From an uncultured Deinococcota bacterium (GTDB lineage: Bacteria > Deinococcota > Deinococci > Deinococcales > Trueperaceae): DNA of 35,466 bases. Positions 15,639-33,218 of this stretch are shown here, in pieces. The notes under the pieces were generated by a model. It saw only the letters and a list, made by a program, of their open reading frames with translations. It searched no databases and had not been told where the DNA came from. Both the position numbers and the translations under genes were made by a program. The DNA lies in NCBI GenBank assembly GCA_947311535.1, contig CAMZLP010000155.1, positions 1 through 35,466 of the forward strand, in the 5' to 3' direction. Within the stretch, counting starts at the first letter, position 1; each line of letters begins with the position of its first letter.

Positions 15639-16011
15639 AATAATTTACCCCGTCTAAGTTTAGATTGGATTAAAATTCCTTATCAATCGAAAGTAATCAT
15701 AACAAATATTGAGAACAATGCGTTTTTTACTATATTTTTTACACAAATAAAGTCAATAATTCAAACACTAAATTCACATAAACATGTTAAACTTTTGGGT
15801 ATTGTTTAAATTGCTTATAGTAATTTAAAGATTTTAATTATATTAAGAAAGACTTAGTGGTGCGCCCGACAGGAATCGAACCCGTGACCTTTCGCTCCGG
15901 AGGCGAACGCTCTATCCAACTGAGCTACGGGCGCATGTCTAAAAAGCTTATCACTGTTAGCCAAGAACTAGAATCTAACAGCTAACAAACTAAGCTTCAT
16001 TAGGAGGAATA
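15639..16011. other. Intergenic region around tRNA-Arg
   Basis: Apart from the tRNA at 15858-15934 this AT-rich stretch holds the upstream regions of the HerA-like gene (minus) and the SurA-like gene (plus). I saw no further ORF or strong hairpin. Confidence 0.6.
15858..15934 (-). tRNA. tRNA-Arg (anticodon CCG)
   Basis: The minus strand folds into a full cloverleaf of 77 bases, including an encoded CCA end. The acceptor stem is GCGCCCG with CGGGCGC, the D-loop reads AGCTCAGTTGGATAGAGC, the T-arm contains GGTTCGATTCC, and the anticodon loop is CTCCGGA, which gives anticodon CCG and decodes CGG arginine. It is GC-rich against an AT-rich background, as normal for tRNA. Confidence 0.97.
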
Positions 16012-29310: not shown

Positions 29311-30786
29311 TCAAATCTCATATTCCTTTATTAATGAGACCATTTTCTTAACTCCAGAAATTATCAAATGCTCATCAACTGCACCATAACCAAGTACCAA
29401 ACCCATTTTGTGGCTATCGTCCAGACTGTAATTAGACAAAGGAAAGGCTTCTATGCCGTTTTCTTTTAGTTTTTTGGCAACTACTACATCATTTAAATTT
29501 GCAGGTAAGTACAAAACAAGATGCATACCGGCTGGGCTCGAGCCTAGCTCAAATTCAGCTAATAAGTCAGCTAACAGGCTAATCAATAGCTCTCTGCGTT
29601 GGGCATAAATAACTCGCATTTTTCTAATATGCCTAGCAAAATGACCCTCGGCAATAAAATCAGCTAAAACCATTTGGTTTATCCACGGTGAACCACGGTC
29701 AAAATGCAAGCGTGCTTTTACAAATGCATCTGTCATGGCTTGGGGTACAACTACATAGCCAAGCCTAAGAGCTGGGAATAAAACCTTGCTAAAGCTGCCT
29801 ATATATACCACCGAATTAGCTTGGTCTAAACCTTGCAATGCTGCTAGGGGTTGGCCCTTAAACCTAAACTCACTGTCATAGTCGTCTTCTAAAATCCAAG
29901 AATTATTGGCTCGAGCCCATTCTAATAATTCCAAGCGTCTAGCTAGGCTCATAATTACACCCATTGGGTATTGATGAGACGGTGAAACATAAGCAAACTT
30001 GGCTTTTGGGGCTTTGCTTATAGCAGTTTTTACACTTAAGCCCTCGCTGTCAATTGCTATCGGAACCATTTTTAACATTGCAGATTTAAAGGCAGCTTGG
30101 GCACCGGTATAGCCGGGGTTTTCTATCCATACTTGGTCATTAGCATCAGCTAATAAATAGCTAGCAATTTGCAAGGCTTGCTGGCTACCATTGACAATTA
30201 TCACTTGTTCTGCCGAGCATTTGACTCCGCGGGCAAGTTTTAAATAATTTGATATTTCTTGCCGTAAAGGCAAATAACCTGCCCCTGAGCCATAAAACAG
30301 GTTTTTGGCTTCTGGTTTTCGCCAGTGCTTATTTAGTAGTCTGCGCCAAATTTTAAATGGGAACTCATTAGTCTCTGGTATGCCTGGCCTAAAAGCTGGA
30401 GTTGAGCTATTATCATAAACTCGGCTAGAAATAAAAGCATCTGCCCTATTTGATAATTTAATGGCGGTATTTAAGCTAACTTGCTTTTGTTGAAAAGTTT
30501 TTACTTTTAAATCTGGTAAATGCTGGCTTACAAATGTGCCTTTACCAACATAGCTTTCTAAATAGCCCTCGGCAATCAACTGCTCTATGGATAGTAATAC
30601 CGTGGAGCGTGACAGCTTTAGTTCGTTAGCAAAGGCTCGAGTCGAAGGTAATCTAAAACCACTACTAAAACGTCCGCAAAGTATGCCCTCTTTTAAATAA
30701 TTATAAAGCTGTTTGTATAAAGGAAGCTCTAAGTCTTTATTTAAAGAAATACCAGCAATTGTCAAAAAGGATTCTTGTTTAGCCAT
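29311..30786 (-). CDS. MocR/PdxR-type GntR regulator
   Basis: The 491-residue protein fuses an N-terminal GntR winged helix (about 10-85, LYKQLYNYLKEGILCGRFSSGFRLPSTRAFANELKLSRSTVLLSIEQLIAEGYLE in two pieces) to a fold-type I aminotransferase domain. PLP-site marks are NPGYTGA, YVSPSHQYPMGV, DDYDSEF, and GSFSKVLFPALRLGY with its Schiff-base Lys. MocR proteins sense PLP or amino compounds and control pdx, gab or other genes. No PLP-synthesis gene is next to it; its divergent neighbour region leads to metG and a possible tiny gene. It likely also controls its own promoter in 30787-31150. Confidence 0.92.
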   Translation of the reverse strand: MAKQESFLTIAGISLNKDLELPLYKQLYNYLKEGILCGRFSSGFRLPSTRAFANELKLSRSTVLLSIEQLIAEGYLESYVGKGTFVSQHLPDLKVKTFQQKQVSLNTAIKLSNRADAFISSRVYDNSSTPAFRPGIPETNEFPFKIWRRLLNKHWRKPEAKNLFYGSGAGYLPLRQEISNYLKLARGVKCSAEQVIIVNGSQQALQIASYLLADANDQVWIENPGYTGAQAAFKSAMLKMVPIAIDSEGLSVKTAISKAPKAKFAYVSPSHQYPMGVIMSLARRLELLEWARANNSWILEDDYDSEFRFKGQPLAALQGLDQANSVVYIGSFSKVLFPALRLGYVVVPQAMTDAFVKARLHFDRGSPWINQMVLADFIAEGHFARHIRKMRVIYAQRRELLISLLADLLAEFELGSSPAGMHLVLYLPANLNDVVVAKKLKENGIEAFPLSNYSLDDSHKMGLVLGYGAVDEHLIISGVKKMVSLIKEYEI

Positions 30787-30941: not shown

Positions 30942-30973
30942 AAAAAAGCAAGGACTAAATATTTTTAGTCCTT
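30942..30973 (-). terminator. Minus-strand intrinsic terminator
   Basis: A 10-bp perfect stem (30950-30959 with 30964-30973) and 4-base loop; on the minus strand it is followed by GC and seven T bases (30942-30948 on the plus strand). The plus strand has no such run. A minus-strand terminator here needs a transcript starting between 30974 and about 31290, which supports the small gene at 31022-31129. Confidence 0.6.
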
Positions 30974-31021
30974 ATAAAATAATTAACTTGAGTTTAGAGT
31001 TGTACAAAACAAAGAGCCCCC

Positions 31022-31155: not shown

Positions 31156-31184
31156 TTGGCAATTAATATAAAATTTGCTATACT
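31156..31184 (+). promoter_or_regulatory. Sigma-70 promoter of metG
   Basis: TTGGCA (31156-31161), a 17-base spacer and TATACT (31179-31184) make one of the best promoters in the window. Transcription should begin near 31190-31192, giving a leader of about 120 bases before metG. Confidence 0.75.
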
Positions 31185-31191
31185 CTTTGAC

Positions 31192-31233
31192 ATGAATAAG
31201 CGAATGATAAGTTCAAACCCTGTTATCGAATAA
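31192..31233 (+). CDS. Possible metG leader peptide
   Basis: ATG 31192 begins at the expected transcription start and encodes MNKRMISSNPVIE, then TAA. It would be leaderless, with a second Met codon at position 5. Its end overlaps the arm CCCTGT of the leader structure. Ribosome stalling at its Met codons could in principle set the fold, but two Met codons including the start are weak evidence. Chance cannot be excluded. Confidence 0.3.
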   Translation: MNKRMISSNPVIE

Positions 31234-31255
31234 CATCTTGTTAATCATTACAGGG
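31203..31255 (+). ncRNA. Possible pseudoknot in the metG leader
   Basis: AATGAT (31203-31208) can pair with ATCATT (31244-31249), and CCCTGT (31218-31223) with ACAGGG (31250-31255). The order of the four arms is A-B-A'-B', which is an H-type pseudoknot of two 6-bp stems. ACAGGG also overlaps the 5' arm of the following terminator, so the two folds exclude each other. This is the layout of a riboswitch or attenuator. I see no match to the T-box sequence. Confidence 0.4.
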
Positions 31256-31294
31256 CGCTTTTTTAAACTAATTAAGAAGCGTCCTTATTTTTTT
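31252..31294 (+). terminator. Attenuator-type terminator before metG
   Basis: A 12-bp stem (31252-31263 with 31274-31285, including two G-U pairs) with a 10-base loop is followed by a run of T bases ending at 31294. It lies between the promoter and the metG ribosome binding site, so it can only act on metG itself, which means it must be conditional. Confidence 0.75.
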
Positions 31295-31310
31295 GTTTGA
31301 AAGGTTAAAA

Positions 31311-33218
31311 ATGACTAAAGGAAAAGAAACATATTATGCCACAACCCCGATTTTTTATGCGAATGCTGAGCCGCATATCGGCCACGCTTACACAACTACA
31401 CTTGTTGATGTTGCCACACGCTTCCATAGATTAAAAGGTGACAACACTTATTTTTTGACAGGAACTGACGAACACGGCGAAAAAATTCAAAAGGCAGCTG
31501 AAGCCAATAATATGAGCCCCCAAGAATACACCGATATGATTGCAGGAAAGTTTAAATCAACTTGGGATTCATTAGACATTCGCTATGATGATTTTGTACG
31601 AACAACCCAAGAACGTCATAAAAAAGTGGTGCGAGAGATTTTGCAAAAGGTTTATGACAATGGCGATATCATTTTTGGTGAATATGGTGGTTTATATTGT
31701 CTTGGTTGTGAACGCTATTACACAGATAAAGAATTAAAAGACGGCAAATGCCCACAGCATGATACTAAGCCAGAATATCGTAGCGAAGAAAACTACTTTT
31801 TCCGCATGGAAAAATATCGCCCTTGGTTACAAGATCATATTAAACAAAACCCCGACTTTATAAGACCAGAAAGATATGCTAATGAAGCCTTAGGGATTTT
31901 GCGTGAACCAATTGGGGACCTGTCAATTAGCCGTCCACGTAACCGAGTACCTTGGGGCATACCACTACCGTGGGACGAGAATCATGTAACCTATGTTTGG
32001 TTTGATGCTTTAATCAATTATTACTCTGCCCTTGACAGTAAAAATTTGATAGATGAGTACTGGCCACATGTCAATCATTTTATCGCCAAAGATATTTTAA
32101 AACCTCATGGGATTTTTTGGCCAACTATGCTAAAATCGGCAGGTATTGATATTTACCCACATTTAAATGTACATGGTTATTGGCTAATAGATCAAGGTAA
32201 AATGAGTAAGTCTAAGGGCAATGTTATAAACCCATTAGATTTAAAAGATAAATATGGCGTTGACGCTTTTAGATATTATTTATTAAAGGATATGCACTTT
32301 GGCTCTGATGCTTCCTTTTCGGAAGAGGGTTTAGCTGAGCGTATTAACAGTGATTTAGCTAATGATTTTGGTAATCTTCTAAATAGGACCTTAGGCATGC
32401 TCGGTAAATATACCGAGGGCAAAGTACCTGGCATAACCAAAATTGAAGAGATTGATCATGATTTAATATCTTCTTTTACAAAATTACCAGAAATATTTAC
32501 AGAGTACTTTGATAATTTAGAATTTGATAAAGCAATTTCGGCAGTGCTCGAGGCTATCCGAAAAGCTAATAAATATATAGCTGACACCGAACCTTGGGTT
32601 TTGGCTAAAGATGAAAACAAAAAAGCTAGATTAGAAACAGTTTTAACTAACTGTGTCGAGGCTTTACGATGTGCTTCGATTTTGCTCGAGCCTGTAATGC
32701 CAAATAAAACAAGGGAGCTAAGAAAGCAACTTGGCATTAAAAATATCCCCTTTAATTTAGCAAGTGCCGCTGAGTGGGATTTGGTACCTGTTAATACCCA
32801 AACTCAAAAAGGCGAACCACTATTTCCTAGAATAGATTTAGAAGCCCTTAAAGAAGAGACTGTAGTAAAAGAGGTTGTGCTCGAGCATAAGCCCGAGGTC
32901 ACAATTGACGACTTTGCCAAATTAGAATTTAGAGTAGCTGAAATTTTAAGCGCTGAAGAGCATCCAAAAGCAGATAAACTATTGGTATTAAACGTGCAAC
33001 TAGGCCCAGAAAAACGCACCATAGTCTCTGGCATAAAAGAATGGTACAAGGCCAAAGAGTTAGCTGGTAAAAAGGTGATAATTGTTGCTAATTTAAAACC
33101 AGTCAAGCTGCGTGGAATACTATCGGAAGGTATGATTATGGCTGCCGAAGATGAAGATGGTAATTTGAGTATTTCTAGCTTGGATAGAGATATTATTTCG
33201 GGTAGTGAAGTTCGTTAG
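31311..33218 (+). CDS. metG: Methionyl-tRNA synthetase
   Basis: This class I enzyme charges tRNA-Met. I chose ATG 31311 (635 residues) with a GAAAGG ribosome binding site 7 bases upstream; TTG 31293 would lie in the terminator's T-run. HIGH is at 22-25 and KMSKS at 297-301. The zinc knuckle has the C130-x-x-C133...C147-x-x-H150 pattern of the Thermus enzyme, and the stretch NYFFRMEKYRPW, GDLSISRPRNRVPWGIPLPW follows Thermus closely. After the anticodon domain, residues from about 520 form a C-terminal tRNA-binding EMAP/Trbp111 domain (DFAKLEFRVAEILSAEEHP), which dimerises in other species. The gene is under its own attenuator-like leader. Its neighbours face away or toward it and are unrelated. 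Confidence 0.97.
   Translation: MTKGKETYYATTPIFYANAEPHIGHAYTTTLVDVATRFHRLKGDNTYFLTGTDEHGEKIQKAAEANNMSPQEYTDMIAGKFKSTWDSLDIRYDDFVRTTQERHKKVVREILQKVYDNGDIIFGEYGGLYCLGCERYYTDKELKDGKCPQHDTKPEYRSEENYFFRMEKYRPWLQDHIKQNPDFIRPERYANEALGILREPIGDLSISRPRNRVPWGIPLPWDENHVTYVWFDALINYYSALDSKNLIDEYWPHVNHFIAKDILKPHGIFWPTMLKSAGIDIYPHLNVHGYWLIDQGKMSKSKGNVINPLDLKDKYGVDAFRYYLLKDMHFGSDASFSEEGLAERINSDLANDFGNLLNRTLGMLGKYTEGKVPGITKIEEIDHDLISSFTKLPEIFTEYFDNLEFDKAISAVLEAIRKANKYIADTEPWVLAKDENKKARLETVLTNCVEALRCASILLEPVMPNKTRELRKQLGIKNIPFNLASAAEWDLVPVNTQTQKGEPLFPRIDLEALKEETVVKEVVLEHKPEVTIDDFAKLEFRVAEILSAEEHPKADKLLVLNVQLGPEKRTIVSGIKEWYKAKELAGKKVIIVANLKPVKLRGILSEGMIMAAEDEDGNLSISSLDRDIISGSEVR

What the first reader, a model, noticed from the sequence alone, without database searches (positions are those of the whole stretch)
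31156..31310. Attenuator-like leader of metG with promoter, tiny ORF, possible pseudoknot and terminator
Within 155 bases are a strong promoter (TTGGCA-N17-TATACT), a possible leaderless 13-residue peptide, two interlocking 6-bp pairings that make an H-type pseudoknot, and a 12-bp terminator with a U-run placed just before the metG ribosome binding site. The ACAGGG arm of the pseudoknot overlaps the terminator stem, so the folds exclude each other. A terminator there would shut off metG unless conditional. It lacks the T-box core that usually controls synthetase genes, so this may be an undescribed methionine, SAM or tRNA sensor.
Basis: partly seen in the sequence, partly recalled or inferred. 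Interest (0 to 1): 0.78.

Follow-up and report, generated by a model that had tools for sequence, protein, structure and literature searches.

The report
Leaderless methionine-codon attenuator before metG
A 13-codon reading frame that starts at the very first base of the metG message appears to let the ribosome measure charged methionine tRNA and switch the methionyl-tRNA synthetase gene on or off, a control not found described before and seen in five families of the Deinococcus-Thermus phylum.

Summary
The leader is real and conserved, but it is not a riboswitch and not a pseudoknot. The window is from an AT-rich Trueperaceae (Deinococcota) genome. Between a promoter and metG lies a leaderless ORF (31192-31233, MNKRMISSNPVIE*). 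Its last codons form the 5' arm of an antiterminator hairpin, whose 3' arm is the base of an intrinsic terminator. The same layout precedes metG in 54 of 69 examined Deinococcota genomes (five families), against 0-2 of 69 shuffles, 1 of 64 metG regions from other phyla and 0 of 92 other stretches. All 54 ORFs hold an internal Met codon, almost always 9-14 nt before the antiterminator, while ORF length varies 7-27 codons. Folding with ribosome masks predicts readthrough when the ORF is untranslated and termination when a ribosome reaches the stop. Best reading: ribosome-mediated attenuation sensing Met-tRNA. Unlike the Trp type it has no protector hairpin, so its default is ON. That suits methionine, because initiation on leaderless messages itself needs fMet-tRNA. 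The same scan finds leaderless ORFs with cognate codons before pheS, and in single genomes before tyrS, trpS, thrS, proS and serS.

The parts
31156..31184 (+). promoter, TTGGCA-N17-TATACT with extended -10 (TG)
   Evidence: a TANNNT -10 box lies 6-11 nt before the leader ORF start in all 54 positive genomes
31192..31233 (+). leader ORF MNKRMISSNPVIE*, predicted leaderless (ATG 7 nt after the -10 box)
   Evidence: leader ORF conserved in 54 of 69 Deinococcota metG regions
31204..31206 (+). regulatory Met codon (codon 5), after the conserved CGA Arg codon
   Evidence: an internal Met codon in 54/54 leaders; in the window it begins 14 nt before the antiterminator arm
31218..31223 (+). antiterminator outer stem, 5' arm CCCUGU (overlaps codons 9-11 of the ORF)
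   Evidence: covariation
31231..31243 (+). antiterminator inner hairpin UAACA/UGUUA, includes the ORF stop codon
   Evidence: 6 of 7 pairs of this helix change on both sides in relatives
31250..31255 (+). antiterminator outer stem, 3' arm ACAGGG; AGGG is also the base of the terminator 5' arm
31252..31294 (+). intrinsic terminator: stem 31252-31263 with 31274-31285, then U-run
   Evidence: mean z -3.5 over 37 leaders
31299..31304 (+). GAAAGG, probable ribosome binding site of metG
   Evidence: sequence
31311..33218 (+). metG, methionine--tRNA ligase (TIGR00398, NF008900)

Best explanation
It is a ribosome-mediated transcription attenuator of metG whose sensor is a leaderless leader peptide with an internal methionine codon. 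(1) Transcription starts at or next to the ATG, so a 70S ribosome with fMet-tRNA loads on the 5' end (inferred from promoter spacing). (2) When Met-tRNA is ample the ribosome reads to the stop codon, which lies inside the antiterminator hairpin. It covers the CCCUGU arm, the GGGCGC segment pairs with the terminator 3' arm, and transcription stops before metG (folding supports this; not measured). (3) When elongator Met-tRNA is scarce the ribosome stalls with Met5 in the A site. Its leading edge then lies at the base of the antiterminator, so CCCUGU:ACAGGG forms, removes the base of the terminator stem from the U-run, and metG is transcribed (geometry shown, function inferred). (4) When fMet-tRNA is so scarce that no ribosome loads, the antiterminator forms by default, so metG is also on (folding supports this). 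Unlike the Trp type there is no protector hairpin. This suits methionine, because the start codon depends on the same synthetase.
For: Conservation: the layout is in 54/69 Deinococcota metG upstream regions over five families; controls gave 0-2/69 shuffles, 1/64 metG of other phyla, 0/92 other stretches, 0/69 reverse strands. A leader model hits 25 of 31 genera, nearly all strong hits at metG. All leaders have an in-frame internal Met although start-to-Met distance varies 6-48 nt; where codon 5 has changed codon 6 is Met and the reverse. First-Met-to-arm distance 11.9 +/- 1.6 nt over 42 leaders, the A-site-to-leading-edge length of a ribosome. Antiterminator 84% paired, covariation 0.283 against 0.160 shuffled and at most 0.154 slid; terminator 95% paired; both mean z about -3.5. 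Masked folding: P(terminator base) 0.19 untranslated, 0.93 with ribosome at stop; window 0.01, 0.10 at Met stall, 0.96 at stop. No protector pairing: z -0.09. More fMet-tRNA strongly raises leaderless translation but hardly canonical translation (PMC9031893). Cognate codons in leaders of other synthetases.
Against: No transcript ends, expression data or starvation response were available. In the equilibrium calculation the Met stall only partly frees the antiterminator on average (P(terminator) 0.61), and lineages with Met only at codon 6 leave 9-10 nt, so the ribosome edge should overlap the arm by about 3 nt. The compact Thermus form (MKGMPRR*) does not give a clear stall-dependent switch. 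A few leaders (L011, L119, L128) favour the terminator even when untranslated. The Met spacing is partly shared ancestry within families. 15 of 69 genomes, including one whole Trueperaceae genus, lack the leader.
Confidence: 0.83

Rival explanations
1. Only initiation is sensed. The leaderless start codon measures fMet-tRNA or free 70S ribosomes, any translating ribosome breaks the antiterminator, and the internal Met codon merely reinforces this.
For: Untranslated RNA favours antitermination in 34 of 44 leaders. Leaderless initiation is especially sensitive to fMet-tRNA (PMC9031893). In Thermus the ORF has 7 codons and a stall at Met4 would mask the arm. There is no protector hairpin.
Against: The internal Met codon is kept in 54/54 leaders at a ruler-like distance from the arm, which initiation sensing alone does not need. 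pheS leaders carry cognate internal codons in the same leaderless layout.
Confidence: 0.12
2. A metabolite- or tRNA-binding RNA (methionine, SAM or uncharged tRNA sensor) with a pseudoknot.
For: In the window alone two 6-bp pairings interlock, and the RNA folds better than shuffles.
Against: The pseudoknot pairing is at chance in relatives. No Rfam riboswitch or T-box. The region between Met codon and arm is not conserved as an aptamer would be. Start, Met and stop codons are kept in frame through many length changes.
Confidence: 0.03
3. A regulatory nascent peptide: the R-M(-M) motif stalls the ribosome in response to free methionine or SAM (TnaC-like), rather than to uncharged tRNA.
For: CGA-ATG (Arg-Met) is kept in most Trueperaceae, Meiothermus, Calidithermus and family f5 leaders.
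Against: Arg is lost in several genera and in Thermus while Met is never lost. The ORF is often too short for the motif to have entered the exit tunnel far, and the residues around it vary.
Confidence: 0.07
4. A constitutive 5' terminator and UTR without regulation, the ORF being fortuitous.
For: No expression data are available, and some genera have lost the element and live without it.
Against: The scan finds the layout in 54/69 metG regions and almost never in controls. Antiterminator covariation. Cognate codons in other synthetase leaders.
Confidence: 0.02

Closest known systems
Trp/His/Leu/Thr-type ribosome-mediated attenuators (Yanofsky type), including the E. coli pheST leader peptide
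   Same: Short ORF with codons of the cognate amino acid, mutually exclusive antiterminator and terminator, terminator just before the gene.
   Different: No 1:2 protector hairpin, so the untranslated default is antitermination. Often a single regulatory codon. The antiterminator 5' arm lies inside the ORF rather than after the stop. The regulatory amino acid is methionine, which is also the initiator.
Leaderless trpL of Sinorhizobium meliloti (rnTrpL/peTrpL, PMC7298713)
   Same: Leader peptide whose AUG is the transcript 5' end, feeding a transcription attenuator.
   Different: Tryptophan, a biosynthetic operon and an alphaproteobacterium; here Met and a synthetase in Deinococcota.
T-box
   Same: The usual regulator of synthetase genes by antitermination; D. 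radiodurans has two, for ile and gly synthetases (PMC2494555).
   Different: No T-box match here. The switch works through a translated ORF. Ile/Leu/Val synthetase regions lacked the leaderless layout, 0 of 23.
Corynebacterium ilvB-II motif (PMC10272879)
   Same: A conserved RNA motif upstream of a gene that proved to be a leader-peptide attenuator rather than a riboswitch.
   Different: Branched-chain amino acids, biosynthetic operon, no leaderless start reported there.

Membership tests
Ribosome-mediated (leader-peptide) transcription attenuator | short ORF with start and stop in the leader, containing codons of the regulated amino acid | tested here: met
   54/69 genomes, all with an internal Met codon
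Ribosome-mediated (leader-peptide) transcription attenuator | mutually exclusive antiterminator and intrinsic terminator | tested here: met
Ribosome-mediated (leader-peptide) transcription attenuator | a ribosome at the control codon leaves the antiterminator free, a ribosome at the stop blocks it | tested here: inconclusive
   Geometry fits. Masked folding is clear for the stop state and for the window, but mixed for the stall state over all leaders
Ribosome-mediated (leader-peptide) transcription attenuator | readthrough rises when the amino acid or its charged tRNA is scarce | not testable with these tools
   needs reporter or RNA-seq under starvation
Trp-type leader in the narrow sense (Rfam Trp/His/Leu/Thr leaders) | 1:2 protector or pause hairpin giving termination when untranslated | tested here: not met
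   ORF-start to arm complementarity z -0.09; untranslated state antiterminated in 34/44; no Rfam match
Leaderless mRNA | transcript 5' end at the start codon | tested here: inconclusive
   -10 box 6-11 nt before the start codon in all positives; no mapped 5' ends
T-box | specifier hairpin and T-box antiterminator bulge (UGGN) | tested here: not met
   no RF00230 match in the window or leader
SAM or other metabolite riboswitch | conserved aptamer, Rfam class match | tested here: not met
   pseudoknot not conserved

The most novel reading that the evidence does not exclude
A methionine-specific, default-ON attenuator in which the leaderless start codon is itself a sensor. Initiator (fMet) and elongator Met-tRNA are both read on one 13-codon ORF, and the protector hairpin of classical attenuators is absent because it would shut the synthetase gene off exactly when methionine fails. 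More broadly, Deinococcota use leaderless leader peptides with cognate codons as a common control of aminoacyl-tRNA synthetase genes.
Probability: 0.45. Interest if true: 0.82.

Novelty: new variant of a known kind. Interest (0 to 1): 0.7.

Why it matters
Synthetase control in Deinococcota is largely undescribed apart from a couple of T-boxes; this gives a testable mechanism in thermophiles and radiation-resistant bacteria that use leaderless messages widely. Methionine is a special case for attenuation because translation must start with it. A default-ON design on a leaderless ORF would show how evolution solves that, and would make leaderless initiation a measurable input to gene control. 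The finding also names new leader peptides that annotation pipelines miss.

Tried and rejected
Pseudoknot AAUGAU/AUCAUU with CCCUGU/ACAGGG: rejected, at chance in relatives. T-box, SAM or other Rfam class: no match. Protector pairing of ORF start with antiterminator arm: absent (z -0.09). Pairing of ORF start with the terminator 3' arm (1:4): strong in some GC-rich leaders (mean z -0.96) but not supported by covariation (62% paired against 60% when slid); left open. A leader elsewhere in the genomes: weak model hits before rplS (L161), a HAD hydrolase (L163), inside ilvD (L166) and others; those inspected lack the ORF and were taken as chance. RNAalifold structure for the model was poor (4 bp), so the model is mainly a sequence profile. 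The pheS antiterminator could not be identified: pheS leaders fold into the terminator in every ribosome state tried. Literature: full-text searches for metG/Met leader-peptide attenuation found nothing; the 2010 comparative survey by Lopatovskaya et al. and the D. deserti leaderless-mRNA paper are not held and could not be read.

Full report
What was checked. The window is 36% G+C, while related loci run from 40 to 70%. The promoter, the 13-codon ORF, the CCCUGU/ACAGGG pairing and the terminator are all at the stated place. The gene after them is methionine--tRNA ligase. No Rfam family matches.

Conservation. The metG upstream regions of 61 relatives were collected, then more Thermaceae. A mechanical scan asked for a -10-like box (TANNNT), 5-11 nt, ATG or GTG, an ORF of 6-32 codons, and a terminator after the stop. 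It finds this in 54 of 69 Deinococcota metG regions: Trueperaceae 25/32, family f2 2/3, f3 1/6, Thermaceae 22/24, f5 4/4. Shuffles give 0-2 of 69, the reverse strand 0, metG of other phyla 1 of 64, other stretches of the same loci 0 of 92. All 54 contain an internal Met codon. A profile of the leader finds 25 of 31 genera, with the strong hits at metG; off-target hits that were inspected lack the ORF.

Structure. In 24 Trueperaceae leaders the antiterminator (CCCUGU/ACAGGG plus the inner hairpin around the stop codon) is paired in 84% of cells. Its covariation score is 0.283, against 0.160 in shuffles and at most 0.154 when slid. The terminator is paired in 95%. Per-sequence folding gives mean z about -3.5 for each over 37 leaders. 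The antiterminator sequence itself diverges (CCCUGU/ACAGGG, CCUUG/CAAGG, CCUGG/CCAGG, CCGGUU/AACCGG, CUCGAG/CUCGAG) while staying complementary.

The ruler. The first Met codon of the internal Met(s) begins 12-14 nt before the 5' arm in most leaders, 9-10 nt in those with Met only at the next codon (mean 11.9, sd 1.6, n 42). The start codon lies 6-48 nt before that Met and the stop 5-17 nt after the arm start in nearly all. From established ribosome footprints (toeprint about 16 nt from the first P-site base), a ribosome with that Met codon in the A site ends about 12 nt into the sequence, just at the arm. A ribosome at the stop codon covers the arm. This is what a stall-sensing attenuator needs. 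It is not what an RNA aptamer needs.

Default state. Masking the ribosome footprint in a partition-function calculation gives a terminator base-pair probability of 0.19 untranslated, 0.61 with a Met stall and 0.93 with a ribosome at the stop. For the window the values are 0.01, 0.10 and 0.96. The stall value is an equilibrium figure; during transcription the antiterminator is complete before the terminator 3' arm exists, which should favour it further (inference). There is no pairing between ORF start and antiterminator arm (z -0.09), so the protector hairpin that gives termination without translation in the Trp type is missing. For methionine this makes sense: MetRS charges both initiator and elongator tRNA, and leaderless initiation is reported to be strongly enhanced by more fMet-tRNA (PMC9031893). 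Whether the start codon really acts as a sensor is inference.

A wider class. The same scan upstream of pheS in 28 genomes gives leaderless ORFs with Phe: MRSIIASLFTN in the window's own genome, MRSLLASPFIT, MVGLTASPFSS, MNVLRSPFTG, MRAYGFFFSY, MVNALSPFTRFA, and by eye MRPYGFFFP and MAGGWFFS. Single genomes show MNFSKRYYPRAF before tyrS, MSSRLVVWWPGSTSG before trpS, MRRPASTTTTWGRGGS before thrS, Pro-bearing ORFs before proS and a Ser-rich one before serS (genes confirmed). The Ile/Leu/Val synthetase regions give none (0 of 23); published T-boxes of D. radiodurans serve ile and gly synthetases (PMC2494555). The pheS leaders do not show the metG-type antiterminator and fold as terminated when untranslated, so the class shares the leaderless ORF and cognate codon but not one fold.

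Known or new. Leader-peptide attenuation is classical, and a leaderless leader peptide is known from S. meliloti trpL (PMC7298713). No description of a methionine-codon leader peptide, of a metG attenuator of this kind, or of such leaders in Deinococcota was found in the held literature. Two relevant papers could not be read. I therefore call it a new variant of a known kind.

Limits. All evidence is comparative and computational. The compact Thermaceae form and the leaders with Met only at codon 6 do not fit the stall geometry perfectly. Family and genus names beyond those matched to named contigs are inferred.

Noticed in passing
L195 (G000:C152, upstream of pheS) and L198-L222: Leaderless ORFs with a Phe codon, often S-P-F, and a terminator precede pheS in most Deinococcota examined; the alternative fold that would relieve termination was not found.
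   Followed up: partly
L249 (tyrS), L251 (trpS), L276 (thrS), L301 and L302 (proS), L303 (serS): Single-genome leaderless ORFs with cognate codons (YY, WW, TTTT, P, S) and a terminator before the matching synthetase genes.
   Followed up: partly
L016, L017, L022, L024, L127 (Trueperaceae genus g7) and L010: One Trueperaceae genus has lost the metG leader; L010 (G003) keeps a promoter and a terminator remnant but no ORF.
   Followed up: partly
Thermaceae genus g20 metG leaders (L112, L116, L175-L178, L187-L190): Leader ORF shrunk to 7 codons, MKGMP.., and its ATGCCCC repeats the terminator 3' arm ATGCCCC, so the terminator 5' arm can pair with either copy.
   Followed up: partly
L005 upstream of metG: Leader ORF extended to 27 codons by an in-frame insertion that carries a second internal Met 10 codons before the stop, near the usual spacing.
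   Followed up: no
window 30949-30974: Strong AT-rich palindrome followed by a T-run on the - strand, upstream of the divergent MocR-like gene 29311-30786; no - strand gene ends there.
   Followed up: no
L038 (Bacillota MAG), about 50-70 nt before metG: A T-box-like antiterminator (GGGUGGUACCGCG) precedes metG, showing the usual Firmicutes control of the same gene.
   Followed up: no
window 15858-15934 (-): tRNA-Arg (anticodon CCG), the only RNA gene in the window.
   Followed up: no
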